A stretch of DNA of 54,233 bases, taken from NCBI GenBank assembly GCA_040878325.1, contig JBBDMM010000015.1, forward strand, positions 1 to 54,233, given 5' to 3'. Below, in pieces: positions 1 through 21,784 of this stretch. The notes below the pieces were generated by a model that was given only the letters and a program-made list of their open reading frames with translations, had not been told where the DNA came from and searched no databases. The position numbers and the translations under genes are program-made. The DNA comes from Acidimicrobiia bacterium. GTDB taxonomy: Bacteria > Actinomycetota > Acidimicrobiia > Spongiisociales > UBA11373. The stretch's first letter is position 1, and the number at the start of each line of letters is the position of its first letter.

Positions 1-48
<48 letters not shown>

Positions 49-1470: not shown

Positions 1471-1546
1471 TGGTGGGTCGGGTGGGAATCGAACCCACAA
1501 CCTTCGGGTTAAAAGCCCGCTGCTCTGCCAATTGAGCTACCGACCC
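1471..1546 (-). tRNA. tRNA-Lys (anticodon UUU)
   Basis: The reverse strand folds as a complete cloverleaf. The acceptor stem is GGGTCGG pairing with CCGACCC, the D arm contains TAGCTCAATTGGCAGAGCA, the anticodon loop is CTTTTAA, and the T arm is GTGGGTTCGATTCCCAC. The discriminator base is A and the CCA end (TGG on the plus strand at 1471-1473) is encoded. The gene stands alone. Confidence 0.97.
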
Positions 1547-1677: not shown

Positions 1678-3486
1678 ATGATCGCGTTTGGTGTTTCCGG
1701 GCTCCCACCCGAAGACGGGGACGACGCGGCGTTTCTCGACGGCCTGGCCGCCCGGGGGCACCGCGCGTATGAGTTCGCCTTCGTGAAGGGCTTCCCGTGG
1801 AAGGAGAAGCGGTGCGCTGCCTTCGGGGCACTCGCCGCCGAGCGCGGCATCGCCATCTCGATCCACGCCCCCTACTTCGCCATCCTCACCTCCGACGACC
1901 CCGAGAAGGCGAAGCTCACCCGCTCGGCGCTCGAGCACACCATGAAACTGGGAGCGGCCTTCGGCAGCCGGGTGATCGTGGCGCACACCGGCTACACCAA
2001 GGGTCGGCCACCCGACGAGCTGCACGCCTTGGCGGCTAAGAGCCTCGAGGTGATCGAGCCCAAGGTGCGCCATCTGGGGGTGGCCCTCGGCCTGGAGGTC
2101 GGCGGGTCCGATCGTGCCTTCGGAACCCTCGGCGACATCGCCCTCATCGCCGGGAACTTTCCCTTCGTCCACCCGGTGGTCGATTGGGCTCACCTTCATG
2201 CCATGTCGCGGGGGGCCTTGACCAGCAAGGAGGCCTTTCTCGGAGTTTTCGCATTCCTGCGCGACAACTTCCCGGGCTGGTCGCTCGATCCGCTCCATTG
2301 CCAGTTCACCGACAACGAATTCGGGCACGCCGGGGAGATCCGCCACCTTCCGTACGGCGAAGGGTCGTTGCGGGTGACCCCGCTGGTCGAAGCGGCAGTC
2401 GAAGCAGGGATGCGGATGACCCTTATCTCCGAGGCCAGGGAGGGGTCGAGCCATGAGGCGATCCAGGCGGAGTTGGAGCAGGCGCGGTCGGCAACGCGGT
2501 CGCCGGCGCAGAACGATGACGACACCCGCTCACTCGCCTCGGGGTCCGTGCCCTTCCCCGCTGGGGTCCAGGTCCGTGCCGAAGCCGACGGATGGATTCC
2601 AGTCGGCCGGGATCGCCAGGTGCGCCTCACCAACATCGACAAGCCGTTCTTTCCCGACGGCTATACGAAAGGTGATTTGATCGCCTATTACGCGGCGATC
2701 GCCCCACTGCTGCTGCCCCATTTGCGTGACAGGGCGATCGTGCTGGCCCGGTTCCCCGACGGGGCCGACGGCGACTGGTTCTATGAGAAGCGGGCACCAT
2801 CACACGCGCCGGAATGGCTGCCGACGGCGCCGCTGTGGTCCGGCCACAAGGGGGAGGACATCGACTTCGTGACCGCACCCGACGTCGAGTCGTTGATGTG
2901 GATCGCCAACCTCGGTGCCATCGAGATCCACCCCTGGTTGAGTCGGATCCTCACTTCGACGGAGCCCGATTTCGCCATCTTCGACCTCGACCCGGCCGAG
3001 GGCGCCGAATGGGACCAGGTGGTCACTGTGGCCAAGGTGATCCGGGTTGCGCTCGAGCGCCTCGGGCTCGCCGGCTACCCCAAGACCTCGGGTGCCACCG
3101 GCCTCCACATCTACGTGCCGCTCGATCCAGTGCACCCCTACGAGCGGGTACGGAAGTTCATCGAGACGGTGGGTCGTCTCGTCGTCGGCGCGGACCCGAG
3201 CCTGGCGACGATGGAGTGGGACATTCCCAAGCGCAAGGGCAAGGTGTTCATCGACCACAACCAGAACGTCGGCGGCAAGACGATTGCCTCGGTGTATTCG
3301 GTGCGCCCCCGCCCCGGTGCACCCGTGTCGACCCCCATTCTGTGGGACGAGGTCGGCGCAGTGAATCCATCGGACTTCACCATCGCCAGCATCTGGGACC
3401 GCGTCGCCCGCCACGGCGACCTCTTCGCGCCGGTCCTGAGAGGCGGGCAGACGCTAGATCGCGCGGAGAGCACACTCGGGAACTAG
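1678..3486 (+). CDS. endonuclease IV-LigD polymerase-domain fusion
   Basis: A 602-residue protein with two repair domains in one frame. Residues 1-265 are an AP-endonuclease-2 TIM barrel. The predicted metal ligands are H63, H103, E140, D169, H172, H207, H223 and E252, spaced almost exactly as in E. coli Nfo, but the position of Nfo D229 reads Ile. Residues about 300-595 are a LigD-type primase-polymerase domain. Its catalytic Asp pair is FDLD at 435-438, the nucleotide-contact His is in SGATGLHIYVP (H477), and the third Asp is D526. A low-complexity linker (about 266-300) joins them. Inferred role: incise abasic or damaged DNA and fill the short gap with NTPs or dNTPs. An in-frame GTG at 1639 would add residues encoded by heptamer repeat, so the ATG at 1678 is preferred. 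No Ku or ligase gene is nearby. Confidence 0.9.
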   Translation: MIAFGVSGLPPEDGDDAAFLDGLAARGHRAYEFAFVKGFPWKEKRCAAFGALAAERGIAISIHAPYFAILTSDDPEKAKLTRSALEHTMKLGAAFGSRVIVAHTGYTKGRPPDELHALAAKSLEVIEPKVRHLGVALGLEVGGSDRAFGTLGDIALIAGNFPFVHPVVDWAHLHAMSRGALTSKEAFLGVFAFLRDNFPGWSLDPLHCQFTDNEFGHAGEIRHLPYGEGSLRVTPLVEAAVEAGMRMTLISEAREGSSHEAIQAELEQARSATRSPAQNDDDTRSLASGSVPFPAGVQVRAEADGWIPVGRDRQVRLTNIDKPFFPDGYTKGDLIAYYAAIAPLLLPHLRDRAIVLARFPDGADGDWFYEKRAPSHAPEWLPTAPLWSGHKGEDIDFVTAPDVESLMWIANLGAIEIHPWLSRILTSTEPDFAIFDLDPAEGAEWDQVVTVAKVIRVALERLGLAGYPKTSGATGLHIYVPLDPVHPYERVRKFIETVGRLVVGADPSLATMEWDIPKRKGKVFIDHNQNVGGKTIASVYSVRPRPGAPVSTPILWDEVGAVNPSDFTIASIWDRVARHGDLFAPVLRGGQTLDRAESTLGN

Positions 3487-4992: not shown

Positions 4993-5418
4993 CCGGCCCG
5001 GCTCCTCCACGGATCGCGGGGCGTTGGGTATTCGGAGCACGAAGCCGATGGCCCAGATACCGATGGCGGCGACGAGGAGCCGCAATGCCATCGGTCCCAG
5101 CACCCACCCGACGCTGTAGGTGAACGCCGCCGTCATAGCCAGAACCGCGACCACCTTGGTCCGCACCGGGATCCCCCGGCCGCTCTGGAAGTCGCTGATG
5201 AACCGGCCGAAACGCTGATGGTTGACGAGCCAGTCGTGCAACCGATCCGAGGACCGGGCGAAGAAGAAGGCGGCGAGCAGAAGCGGGCCCGTCGTAGGTA
5301 TCAAGGGAAGAAAGACGCCCACGATGCCGATGCCGACGAAGAGCAGACCGAGTACGAGGTAGAGGGCGCGCAACGCCGGTCCCCGCGGATGAAGGCCAGC
5401 AGCCATGGTCTCCTGCAC
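4990..5418 (-). CDS. DUF454 (YbaN-like) membrane protein
   Basis: A 142-residue inner-membrane protein of the YbaN/DUF454 family. It has the family pattern of a first helical hairpin with GLLFVGIGIVGVFLPLIPTTG, then FFFARSSDRLHDWLVNHQRFG, and two more helices near the C terminus. The function of the family is unknown. The GTG start at 5418 is chosen because TACTGT lies six bases upstream; an in-frame ATG at 5406 is the alternative. The gene shares its strand with the hypothetical-sseA pair at 4980, whose -10 box lies inside its last codons. Confidence 0.8.
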   Translation of the reverse strand: MQETMAAGLHPRGPALRALYLVLGLLFVGIGIVGVFLPLIPTTGPLLLAAFFFARSSDRLHDWLVNHQRFGRFISDFQSGRGIPVRTKVVAVLAMTAAFTYSVGWVLGPMALRLLVAAIGIWAIGFVLRIPNAPRSVEEPGR

Positions 5419-5601: not shown

Positions 5602-6474
5602 ATGAAGAGGCTTCATCTGCTCGATGGAACCTACGAGCTGTTCCGGTCTCACTTTGGGGCACCGTCGCGGTTGTCGCCCGACGGGAGCGAGATCGGGGCC
5701 GTTCATGGGATCGTCGCGTCGACACTCAACCTGCTGCAGGAAGATGGGGTGACCCATCTCGGGGCTGCGTTCGATACGGTCATTCGGTCGTTTCGCAACG
5801 ACCTGTACCACGGCTACAAGACCGAGGTGGGGGTTCCCCCGGAGTTGCTGGCACAGTTCCCGATCGCTGAAGACGCGCTCGACGCAATCGGTGTGACTGT
5901 GTGGCGGATGCGCGAGTACGAGGCGGATGATGCGATTGCGTCGGCGGTCGTCAGGTACGGCGGCGATTTCGAGCAGGTGGTGATCCTGTCCCCTGACAAG
6001 GATCTCCGCCAATGTGTCGACGGCCAGCGGGTGGTGGGCTTCGATCGCCGTCAGGGGATCTTCATCGACGAAGCGGGGGTCGTCGAGAAGTTCGGCGTAT
6101 CGCCCGCGTCGATCCCCGACTACCTCGGCCTGGTGGGCGACAGCGCCGATGGATTCCCGGGCGTCCCTGGATGGGGAGCCAAATCGGCCTCGGTGGTGCT
6201 GGCCGAGTACCGGCACATCGAGAACATTCCGCTCGAAGTCGGTCTGTGGTCGGTGTCGGTCCGGGGAGCGCTACGGCTGGTGGAGTCGTTGCGGGAGCAC
6301 ATGGGCGACGCGCTCCTCTTCAGGTTTCTCGCTCGACTTCGACCCGACGTGCCGCTCACCGAGACCACCGAGGATCTCCGCTGGAAGGGCGTGCCCCGGA
6401 AGCGATTCACCGACTTCTGCGACCGGTACGGATTCGACACCATTCGCGACCGCCCGCGGGTGTGGGCGGATTAG
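5602..6474 (+). CDS. stand-alone 5'-3' exonuclease (Pol I N-domain/FEN type)
   Basis: A 290-residue homologue of the 5'-nuclease domain of DNA polymerase I, without a polymerase. The N-terminal PIN-like motif LLDGTYELFRSHF, the acidic motif YEADDAIASAV and the SPDKDLRQ motif provide metal-binding carboxylates. A helix-3-turn-helix (LGLVGDSADGFPGVPG) contacts DNA. Such proteins remove RNA primers or 5' flaps and could process ends for the polymerase fusion upstream, though no operon link exists. Length matches stand-alone bacterial FENs. The ATG at 5602 has a TAGCCT box six bases upstream. Confidence 0.88.
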   Translation: MKRLHLLDGTYELFRSHFGAPSRLSPDGSEIGAVHGIVASTLNLLQEDGVTHLGAAFDTVIRSFRNDLYHGYKTEVGVPPELLAQFPIAEDALDAIGVTVWRMREYEADDAIASAVVRYGGDFEQVVILSPDKDLRQCVDGQRVVGFDRRQGIFIDEAGVVEKFGVSPASIPDYLGLVGDSADGFPGVPGWGAKSASVVLAEYRHIENIPLEVGLWSVSVRGALRLVESLREHMGDALLFRFLARLRPDVPLTETTEDLRWKGVPRKRFTDFCDRYGFDTIRDRPRVWAD

Positions 6475-19921: not shown

Positions 19922-20002
19922 GCCACCAGTCACCAGTCACCAGTCACCAGCCAACAGCCACCAGCCACCAGCCACCAGCCTCTGGCCGTGGGCCGTGGGC
20001 CC
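19922..20002. repeat. CACCAGT/CACCAGC heptamer array
   Basis: Eight perfect-phase 7-mers: GCCACCA, GTCACCA three times, GCCAACA, GCCACCA three times (19922-19977). A second short run GGCCGTG, GGCCGTG, GGCC follows (19984-20001). The unit closely resembles the cyanobacterial STRR unit CAACAGT. Confidence 0.9.
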
Positions 20003-20005
20003 TCT

Positions 20006-20011
20006 TATCCT
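20006..20011 (+). promoter_or_regulatory. leaderless -10 box TATCCT
   Basis: TATCCT six bases before the GTG at 20018, just after the heptamer array. Confidence 0.6.
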
Positions 20012-20017
20012 TCCTTT

Positions 20018-21784
20018 GTGGTTTCTAATGCCGACATTGCTCGCCATCTCTATGAAATGGCGCGGCTCGCAACTCTTGCCGAAGGGTCCAGCAATGCCTT
20101 TCGGGTTCGCGCCTACGAGACGGCGGCTCGCACCATCGACGGGCATCCCGACGCGGTGGCGGAGATGACCGGGCCTCAACTCACCGAGCTGCGCGGCGTG
20201 GGCAAGAGCACGGCGGAGAAAATTCGCGAACTTGTCGAGAAGGGCTCGATCGCGCGGCTCGAGGAGCTGCGGGCACTGTTCCCCGCTGGCTTCGTGGCGC
20301 TCACCCGGGTTCCCGGCATCGGGCCGAAGACGGCGGTGCGCCTGCGCGACGAACTGGGAATCTCGAGTGTCGAGGAACTGCGGGCGGCCATCGACCGACA
20401 TGAGCTGCGCGACATGCCGGGCATGGGGGAGAAGACCGAGGAGAACATCCGCAACTCGATCGAGCGCCTCGGTGTCGGCGGGAAGGAGAACCGAACCCCG
20501 ATCATCGAGGCGATAGGTGTCGCCCGCGAGGTCTGCGAGGCACTCCTCGGAGTGCCGGGCGTCCGATCCGCCGAGCCGATGGGGAGCCTGCGTCGATTCC
20601 GCGAGACCATCGGCGACATCGACATCATCGCGGTGACCAAAGGTGATCCGGAGGAAGTGATGCAGCGGTTCGTGGGGCTGGCCATCGTGCAGGAAGTGGT
20701 CGGGTACGGGGCCCGCAAGTCGGCCATCATCGGGAGGCAGGGGATGCAGATCGACCTACGGGTCGTGGAGCCTGCTGAGTTGGGGTCGGCGTCCGTCTAC
20801 TTCACCGGCTCGAAGGCGCACAATATCCGCTTGAGGCAGATGGCTCTCGACCGGGGCTGGACGCTGAACGAGTACGCCCTCTCAGAGATCGACACGGGGA
20901 AAGTCGTTGCCTCGAGGACCGAGGAGGACGTGTACGCCGCTCTCGGTCTGCCGTGGATTCCGCCCGAGATCCGCGAGGACGACGGCGAGATCGAGGCCGC
21001 GCTCGACGGCTCGCTTCCGAAGTTCGCCACAGAGAGGGGATTGAAGGGTGACCTGCACGTTCACACCGACCTCAGTGGCGACGGCCACGTGTCGCTGGAC
21101 GAGGTGATCGCCGCGGTCGCGGAACGCGGTTACCGGTACGTCGCGATCACCGACCACGCCGAGGATCTCACGATCAACGGCGCCACCCGCGACCAGCTTC
21201 TCAGCCAGCGCCGGGCGATCGGGCGGCTGCGCCGCCGCTATCCCGACCTGGCCATCCTCCAGGGGCTCGAACTGAACATCGGGGCCGGCGGCACCATCGA
21301 CTACGACCCGGATTTCCTTTCTGGTTTCGACTTTGGCGTGGCCAGCGTCCACAGCCAGTTCCGGCTTTCCCCGAAGAAGCAGACCGCCCGGGTGGTCGCC
21401 GCGATGCGCAACCCGGCGGTGAATGTCATCGGACACCTCACGGGCCGGCGAATCGGGAAGCGGCCGGGTATCGACCTCGACATCGACGCGGTGCTGGCGG
21501 TGGCCGTCGAGACCGGCTGCGCGCTCGAGATCAACTGCCACCTCGACCGTCTCGACACCCCGTCCGAAGTCCTTCGCCGGGCCATCGAGCACCCGGAGGT
21601 GGTGTTCGCCATCAGCACCGACACCCACCGCCTCCACGAACTGGACAACACGGTAAATGGCCTCCGCCTCGCCCGCCGGGGCTGGGTCGACCGCAGCCGG
21701 GTGGTGAACACCTGGCCGCAAAAGAAGTTCCTGGCGTGGGTGAAGAGGAAGCGCAATTCGCAATTCGCAATTCGCAATACGTAG
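20018..21784 (+). CDS. polX: DNA polymerase X with PHP domain
   Basis: A 588-residue bacterial PolX. An N-terminal 8-kDa-like and helix-hairpin-helix region (TELRGVGKSTAEKI, LTRVPGIGPKTAVRL) precedes the nucleotidyltransferase core. That core has GSLRRFRETIGDIDIIAV, giving the catalytic Asp pair. The C-terminal PHP domain begins GDLHVHTDLSGDGHV and includes AITDHAEDL and ISTDTHRLHE, a 3'-5' exonuclease and AP-endonuclease module. It fills short gaps in base excision repair. The last residues (KRKRNSQFAIRNT) are encoded by a four-unit heptamer array, so the repeat has become coding. GTG start supported by a leaderless -10 box. Confidence 0.93.
   Translation: MVSNADIARHLYEMARLATLAEGSSNAFRVRAYETAARTIDGHPDAVAEMTGPQLTELRGVGKSTAEKIRELVEKGSIARLEELRALFPAGFVALTRVPGIGPKTAVRLRDELGISSVEELRAAIDRHELRDMPGMGEKTEENIRNSIERLGVGGKENRTPIIEAIGVAREVCEALLGVPGVRSAEPMGSLRRFRETIGDIDIIAVTKGDPEEVMQRFVGLAIVQEVVGYGARKSAIIGRQGMQIDLRVVEPAELGSASVYFTGSKAHNIRLRQMALDRGWTLNEYALSEIDTGKVVASRTEEDVYAALGLPWIPPEIREDDGEIEAALDGSLPKFATERGLKGDLHVHTDLSGDGHVSLDEVIAAVAERGYRYVAITDHAEDLTINGATRDQLLSQRRAIGRLRRRYPDLAILQGLELNIGAGGTIDYDPDFLSGFDFGVASVHSQFRLSPKKQTARVVAAMRNPAVNVIGHLTGRRIGKRPGIDLDIDAVLAVAVETGCALEINCHLDRLDTPSEVLRRAIEHPEVVFAISTDTHRLHELDNTVNGLRLARRGWVDRSRVVNTWPQKKFLAWVKRKRNSQFAIRNT
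21751..21778. repeat. heptamer array inside polX 3' end
   Basis: GCGCAAT, TCGCAAT, TCGCAAT, TCGCAAT form the last coding bases of polX, translated as the tail before TAG. Confidence 0.88.

What the first reader, a model, noticed from the sequence alone, without database searches (positions are those of the whole stretch)
1678..3486. Endonuclease IV fused to a LigD-type polymerase domain
One uninterrupted frame encodes an AP endonuclease with eight of nine expected metal ligands in near-exact E. coli Nfo spacing, and a complete NHEJ-type polymerase domain with its Asp pair, His and third Asp. I know of no described fusion of this kind. Mycobacterial Prim-PolC, a relative of the polymerase part, is known for short-gap repair, so joining it to an incision enzyme suggests a one-protein abasic-site excision and gap-filling system.
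Basis: partly seen in the sequence, partly recalled or inferred. Interest (0 to 1): 0.88.

Follow-up and report, generated by a model that had tools for sequence, protein, structure and literature searches.

The report
Endonuclease IV-like end-joining polymerase
One bacterial protein joins a DNA-end-trimming domain, related to the repair enzyme endonuclease IV, to the gap-filling polymerase used to rejoin broken chromosomes; we found no published description of this combination, and gene-occurrence patterns tie it to break rejoining more than to ordinary base repair.

Summary
ORF 1678-3486 encodes one 602-aa protein: an endonuclease IV-like TIM barrel (about 1-274) followed by a complete LigD-type polymerase (about 312-590). 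It is not an artefact: the fusion is full length in 27 of 36 sampled genomes of its order and in 7 genomes of two other families of the phylum, and three genomes of a further genus carry the same two domains in reverse order. The metal site is retained (H207 alternates with Q).

The interpretation needs shifting. The polymerase groups with NHEJ (LigD) polymerases, not Prim-PolC, and lacks Prim-PolC's Loop 3. In the home order 25 of 27 fusion genomes have Ku; the two other Ku genomes carry a conventional PE-LIG-POL LigD instead. All ten fusion genomes examined elsewhere have Ku, mostly with a stand-alone NHEJ ligase beside it. The home genome has one Ku, one such ligase, no PE domain, no other LigD-type polymerase, and a separate true Nfo.

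Best reading: the fusion supplies polymerase and 3'-end healing to a split NHEJ system. Abasic-site repair is a serious, perhaps overlapping, rival: one genus keeps the fusion without Ku. No activity has been tested. The architecture appears undescribed in the literature held.

The parts
1678..3486 (+). ORF, 602 aa: endonuclease IV-like domain fused to LigD-type polymerase
   Evidence: open frame; Pfam domains; homologues in 22 MAG contigs and full length in 34 genomes
1678..2499 (+). Endonuclease IV-like TIM barrel, residues 1-274; metal site H63, H103, E140, D169, H172, H207, E220, H223, E252
   Evidence: PF01261 E 1.6e-23; AlphaFold2 pLDDT 93.8; 14 best VIA-align rows are endonuclease IV/APN1, Z 27.0 to 25.1; eight of nine ligand positions invariant in 34 fusions, position 207 H or Q
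2500..2610 (+). Linker, residues 275-311, poorly conserved (32% mean identity over 271-311 against 62% and 67% in the two domains)
   Evidence: low-confidence segment 275-280 in the model
2611..3447 (+). LigD-type (NHEJ) polymerase domain, residues 312-590; catalytic D436, D438, H477, D526; 5'-phosphate pocket N319, K322, K331; loop-2 Arg R519
   Evidence: PF21686 297 bits; TIGR02778 237.8 bits, cut-off 214.7; VIA-align Z 37.4 to the Methanocella NHEJ polymerase and 35.3 to M. tuberculosis LigD-Pol; residue counts

Best explanation
The protein is the polymerase and end-healing component of a split bacterial NHEJ system. Ku binds a double-strand break. The polymerase domain docks on the 5'-phosphate and is recruited to the Ku-bound end. 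The endonuclease IV-like domain, tethered to it, removes 3'-blocking groups or abasic residues (3'-phosphate, 3'-phosphoglycolate, 3'-unsaturated aldehyde, AP sites) to give a 3'-OH. The polymerase then fills the gap, probably with ribonucleotides. The stand-alone ligase encoded beside Ku seals the nick. In most of the home order the TIM barrel thus takes the place that the PE domain has in conventional LigD. Shown here: the fusion, its conservation, intact catalytic residues, NHEJ-type polymerase ancestry, co-occurrence with Ku and a POL-less NHEJ ligase, and absence of PE in most home-order genomes. Inferred: physical recruitment by Ku, nuclease activity and its substrates, order of steps, and ribonucleotide use.
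For: Home order, 36 genomes: fusion and Ku 25, fusion only 2, Ku only 2, neither 7; Fisher p = 1.4e-4, not corrected for kinship. Both Ku-only genomes carry PE, LIG and POL in one 833/865-aa frame next to Ku, so fusion and full LigD replace each other. PE occurs in only 6 of the 25 fusion+Ku genomes and in both LigD genomes. Home genome: Ku (TIGR02772, 293 bits, cut-off 150) and about 1.1 kb away a 311-aa NHEJ ligase (TIGR02779, 250.6 bits, cut-off 227.75) without POL or PE; the only LigD-type polymerase is the fusion. In 16 of the 25, Ku lies within about 9 kb (15 of them within about 2 kb) of a stand-alone LIG. The seven fusions in families f69/f72 and the three reversed fusions in f65 all have Ku, and seven of those ten have a LIG on the Ku contig within about 2 kb, two of them cut at contig ends. 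Polymerase tree: with LigD polymerases 97/97, Prim-PolC clade separate 100/99. No Loop 3. Reversed domain order in G214, G351 and (frameshifted) G390 argues for functional coupling. Literature: POL mediates the Ku-LigD contact (PMC7719229); endonuclease IV removes 3'-phosphates ahead of a Prim-Pol in reconstituted repair (PMC5663958); bacterial Ku leaves 3'-PUA ends that need cleaning (PMC4245934).
Against: Two genomes of genus g12 (G034, G058; 100% and 95% complete) keep the fusion with all invariant residues but have neither Ku nor an ATP-dependent ligase. The fusion gene is not on the same contig as Ku in the home genome and Ku is not among its recurrent neighbours. In families f69/f72 PE is also present in six of seven genomes, so replacement of PE is not general. 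In nine of the 25 home-order fusion+Ku genomes no stand-alone LIG lies near Ku. The co-occurrence sample contains related genomes. No biochemical or genetic data exist, and all genomes seen by name are metagenome assemblies.
Confidence: 0.6

Rival explanations
1. Base excision repair enzyme: the TIM barrel incises 5' of abasic sites or cleans 3' ends after glycosylase/lyase action, and the attached polymerase fills the one-nucleotide gap, with ligation by LigA or another ligase, independently of Ku.
For: Metal site and the DNA-intercalating Tyr (Y66, aligned with E. coli Y72) are conserved. Genus g12 keeps the fusion without Ku or ATP ligase. A mycobacterial pathway uses endonuclease IV, Prim-PolC and LigC in sequence (PMC5663958). 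B. subtilis LigD and Nfo are epistatic and LigD fills gaps at incised AP sites (PMC4770248).
Against: The polymerase is not of the Prim-PolC clade and lacks Loop 3. Occurrence follows Ku and a Ku-adjacent NHEJ ligase. The home genome has no LigC or Prim-PolC and has a separate true Nfo (NF002198, 373 bits, cut-off 244).
Confidence: 0.25
2. The TIM barrel acts on another phosphodiester or is mainly a DNA-binding module: a divergent AP_endonuc_2 domain that trims 3'-ribonucleotides or another end chemistry, or positions the break, rather than an AP endonuclease.
For: The nfo model scores far below its cut-off (20 of 130 bits). Weak hits to the cobamide phosphodiesterase CbiR occur in 11 of 34 members. 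Stand-alone relatives in f73 have lost the Tyr and lie beside unrelated genes. In 13 of 34 fusions the H207 ligand is Gln.
Against: The whole endonuclease IV metal site is conserved, including the His positions that sugar epimerases of this fold do not need (the comparison with epimerases is general knowledge); closest folds are endonuclease IV, ahead of epimerases.
Confidence: 0.13
3. Assembly or gene-calling artefact, or a recent accidental fusion without function.
For: The window's contig starts with a run of 48 C, an evident sequence artefact, though 1.6 kb upstream of the ORF.
Against: Full-length fusions at 53-81% identity in 33 other distinct sequences with invariant active sites, further fusions at 42-47%, and the reverse-order fusion.
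Confidence: 0.01

Closest known systems
Bacterial LigD (PE-POL-LIG multidomain NHEJ ligase) and its split or operonic variants
   Same: Polymerase of the same clade, co-occurrence with Ku, an NHEJ-type LIG in the genome, and joining of an end-processing domain to POL in one chain.
   Different: No ligase domain in the chain; the end-processing module is an endonuclease IV-like TIM barrel instead of the PE beta-barrel; LIG is a separate gene beside Ku.
Endonuclease IV (Nfo/APN1)
   Same: Fold (Z 27.0, rmsd 2.6 over 265 residues), eight of nine metal ligands plus a conservative Asp-to-Glu, the intercalating Tyr.
   Different: 17-18% structural identity, nfo model far below cut-off, E220 spaced three residues from H223 instead of two, H207 replaced by Gln in some members, fused to a polymerase.
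Mycobacterial Prim-PolC / LigC excision repair complex with endonuclease IV (PMC5663958)
   Same: Pairs an endonuclease IV activity with an AEP-family gap-filling polymerase in sequence.
   Different: There the proteins are separate; the polymerase is of another clade and has Loop 3; LigC, not Ku, is the partner.
B. subtilis LigD plus Nfo in spores (PMC4770248)
   Same: Functional interaction between an NHEJ polymerase-ligase and an endonuclease IV.
   Different: Separate proteins acting in trans; here they are covalently joined and LIG is separate.
Nuclease-ligase fusions of the LigB type (RMMBL domain; PMC10140301)
   Same: A nuclease fused to a DNA-joining repair enzyme in bacteria.
   Different: Metallo-beta-lactamase-type nuclease with a ligase, not a TIM-barrel nuclease with a polymerase.

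Membership tests
LigD-type NHEJ polymerase (Prim-PolD) | Score above the curated model cut-off (TIGR02778, PF21686) | tested here: met
   237.8 bits against 214.7; 297 bits against 27.4
LigD-type NHEJ polymerase (Prim-PolD) | Catalytic Asp pair, His, third Asp; 5'-phosphate pocket Asn/Lys/Lys | tested here: met
   D436, D438, H477, D526, K331 invariant; N319 and K322 in 33 of 34
LigD-type NHEJ polymerase (Prim-PolD) | Phylogenetic placement with LigD polymerases | tested here: met
   97/97 branch with full and split LigD polymerases of the phylum; the long-branched M. tuberculosis and Pseudomonas references are not firmly placed
LigD-type NHEJ polymerase (Prim-PolD) | Works with Ku | tested here: inconclusive
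   Co-occurrence 25 of 27 in the home order and 10 of 10 elsewhere; interaction itself not testable here
Prim-PolC (LigC-associated) | C-terminal Loop 3 extension | tested here: not met
   The chain ends at the equivalent of residue 307 of M. smegmatis Prim-PolC (Loop 3 is 313-333, PMC5663958); nine LigC-associated paralogues in the same order extend about 27-34 residues past the fusion's end
Prim-PolC (LigC-associated) | Clade with Prim-PolC | tested here: not met
   The Prim-PolC clade is separate, 100/99
Endonuclease IV (Nfo) | TIM-barrel fold of the family | tested here: met
   14 best structural matches are endonuclease IV/APN1
Endonuclease IV (Nfo) | Nine-ligand trinuclear metal site | tested here: met
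   Eight identical plus D229 to E220; the geometry at E220 was not superposed
Endonuclease IV (Nfo) | Score above the nfo family cut-off | tested here: not met
   18.4-20.8 bits against 129.65; not filed as an Nfo, only as endonuclease IV-like
Endonuclease IV (Nfo) | AP-site incision activity | not testable with these tools
   needs purified protein
Conventional LigD | Ligase domain in the same chain | tested here: not met
   no ligase domain; LIG is a separate 311-aa gene beside Ku

The most novel reading that the evidence does not exclude
A previously undescribed form of bacterial NHEJ in which an endonuclease IV-derived metallonuclease, fused to the polymerase in either of two domain orders in separate lineages, replaces or supplements the LigD PE domain as the 3'-end-healing module and lets one enzyme handle abasic and 3'-blocked double-strand breaks.
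Probability: 0.5. Interest if true: 0.82.

Novelty: new variant of a known kind. Interest (0 to 1): 0.72.

Why it matters
Bacterial NHEJ is described as Ku plus LigD with PE, POL and LIG domains (PMC7719229, PMC8656161). This would add a fourth kind of module, taken from base excision repair, and would explain how bacteria without PE clean damaged 3' ends. It turns the genetic interaction between LigD and Nfo seen in B. subtilis spores into a testable single enzyme, and could be a compact tool for repairing damaged DNA ends in vitro.

Tried and rejected
Assembly artefact: rejected by conservation. Phage or plasmid origin: no relatives in viral contigs, and no plasmid record where one place covers 80% of the query. 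Anti-phage defence: no PADLOC match. Conserved operon: no neighbour is shared by all loci; a rhodanese-like ORF recurs in 12 loci and a 5'-3' exonuclease in 9, on limited flanks. PE replacement as a general rule: rejected, because families f69/f72 carry PE as well. A Pfam check of the G094 LigD failed on coordinates; its domains rest. Three paper searches failed on term format and were replaced.

Full report
Observation. The frame 1678-3486 on the + strand encodes 602 residues from an ATG at 1678. A longer frame from GTG 1639 exists, but homologues begin at the same MIRFG-like position. Pfam finds AP_endonuc_2 (residues 23-267, E 1.6e-23) and LigD_Prim-Pol (330-583, E 1.4e-88), both well above cut-off.

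The TIM barrel. Against E. coli Nfo, eight of nine metal ligands are identical: H63, H103, E140, D169, H172, H207, H223 and E252. The ninth, D229, is E220. Spacings are nearly those of Nfo. The model is confident (pLDDT 93.8), and the 14 best structural matches are all endonuclease IV or APN1 (Z 27.0 to 25.1), ahead of sugar epimerases. The Tyr that intercalates in Nfo is invariant in all fusions as Y66 (the role of E. coli Y72 is from general knowledge). Sequence similarity is nevertheless low: 17-18% by structure, and 20 bits in the nfo model against a cut-off of 130. I therefore call it endonuclease IV-like, not Nfo. A true Nfo is encoded elsewhere in the same genome (G000:C6:140314-141048; NF002198 373 bits, cut-off 244).

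The polymerase. It passes the NHEJ polymerase model (TIGR02778, 237.8 bits against 214.7) and has the catalytic D436/D438, H477 and D526, the loop-2 Arg R519, and the 5'-phosphate pocket N319/K322/K331 (pocket and loop residues named in PMC5663958). Its nearest solved structures by VIA-align are the Methanocella NHEJ polymerase (Z 37.4), tied with M. smegmatis Prim-PolC (36.6), then M. tuberculosis LigD-Pol (35.3). Fold alone does not discriminate, but the tree and Loop 3 do. In a 60-row tree the fusion polymerases join full and split LigD polymerases of the phylum (97/97), while Prim-PolC and the LigC-associated paralogues of the same order form their own clade (100/99). The Prim-PolC hallmark Loop 3 (residues 313-333) is absent, since the fusion ends at the equivalent of residue 307, whereas nine LigC-associated paralogues extend about 27-34 residues past the fusion's end.

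Distribution. A peptide-pattern scan of 84,980 prokaryotic genomes gave 22 loci, mostly from Acidimicrobiia metagenome assemblies, of which 18 cover at least 570 residues of the query. In a sample of the class, 27 of 36 genomes of the home order and none outside it carry the full fusion. A sample of the phylum adds seven fusions at 42-47% identity in families f69 and f72. A profile of the N-terminal domain also finds it beside the polymerase in three genomes of genus g138, family f65. There one frame of about 600 residues reads polymerase first and TIM barrel second in G214 and G351, and G390 has the same order with a frameshift. Stand-alone relatives in family f73 have lost the Tyr and lie among unrelated genes. 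Two domain orders for the same pair argue for a functional tie.

Association with NHEJ. In the home order Ku is present in 25 of the 27 fusion genomes and in 2 of the 9 others (Fisher p = 1.4e-4 without correction for kinship). The two exceptions, G094 and G101, carry PE, LIG and POL in one frame beside Ku, so the fusion and a conventional LigD appear to substitute for each other. Fusion and Ku are missing together in some members of families f1, f2 and f3, which suggests several joint losses. In 16 of the 25, Ku lies within about 9 kb of a stand-alone ligase, 15 of them within about 2 kb. In the home genome these are Ku (TIGR02772, 293 bits) and a 311-aa ligase (TIGR02779, 250.6 bits) without POL or PE, about 1.1 kb apart, and the fusion is the only LigD-type polymerase. 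PE is found in only 6 of the 25. The seven fusions in f69/f72 and the three reversed fusions also have Ku, mostly with an NHEJ ligase next to it, although six of the seven f69/f72 genomes have PE as well.

Mechanism. The polymerase domain of LigD mediates contact with Ku (PMC7719229). Bacterial Ku can cut AP sites, and such lyases leave 3'-PUA ends that must be cleaned (PMC4245934). Endonuclease IV removes 3'-phosphates before Prim-Pol filling in a reconstituted mycobacterial pathway (PMC5663958), and in B. subtilis spores LigD and Nfo act epistatically (PMC4770248). The simplest model is that the fusion brings 3'-end healing and gap filling to Ku-bound breaks, with the Ku-adjacent ligase sealing. 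Recruitment, activity, substrates and ribonucleotide use are inferred. The main difficulty is genus g12, which keeps an intact fusion without Ku or any ATP-dependent ligase. A Ku-independent abasic-site role therefore remains possible, alone or in addition.

Novelty. No paper held describes an endonuclease IV domain joined to an NHEJ polymerase. The survey of NHEJ domain combinations in 5,973 genomes treats PE, POL and LIG combinations only, in the passages read. Subscription papers and domain-architecture databases could not be searched, so 'undescribed' is limited to that library. I rate it a new variant of bacterial NHEJ.

Noticed in passing
window 1-48: The contig begins with a run of 48 C, an evident sequence or assembly artefact, away from the ORF studied.
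   Followed up: no
window 1471-1546 (-): tRNA-Lys (TTT) gene about 130 bases upstream of the fusion ORF, on the opposite strand.
   Followed up: no
window 5602-6474 (+): Stand-alone 5'-3' exonuclease (similar to the exonuclease part of DNA polymerase I and to Xni), recurring downstream of the fusion in 9 of the 33 loci compared; a possible flap-removal partner.
   Followed up: partly
window 19988-21784 (+): DNA polymerase X with PHP domain (NF006375, 463 bits, cut-off 426), a second repair polymerase in the window.
   Followed up: partly
L047, L048 (genomes G034, G058): Genus that keeps an intact fusion but has no Ku and no ATP-dependent DNA ligase; unexplained by the NHEJ reading.
   Followed up: partly
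L093, L094, L095 (family f73): Stand-alone TIM-barrel relatives of the N-terminal domain with the metal site kept but the intercalating Tyr replaced by Leu, among genes without an evident NHEJ link; function unknown.
   Followed up: partly
L090 about 5079-5160 (genome G390): The reversed fusion is split by a frameshift in this genome; it could be sequencing error or a real split.
   Followed up: no
genome G320 (C243, C124, C218): Carries both a LigD-like 842-aa frame and the endonuclease IV-like/polymerase fusion plus a stand-alone NHEJ ligase.
   Followed up: no
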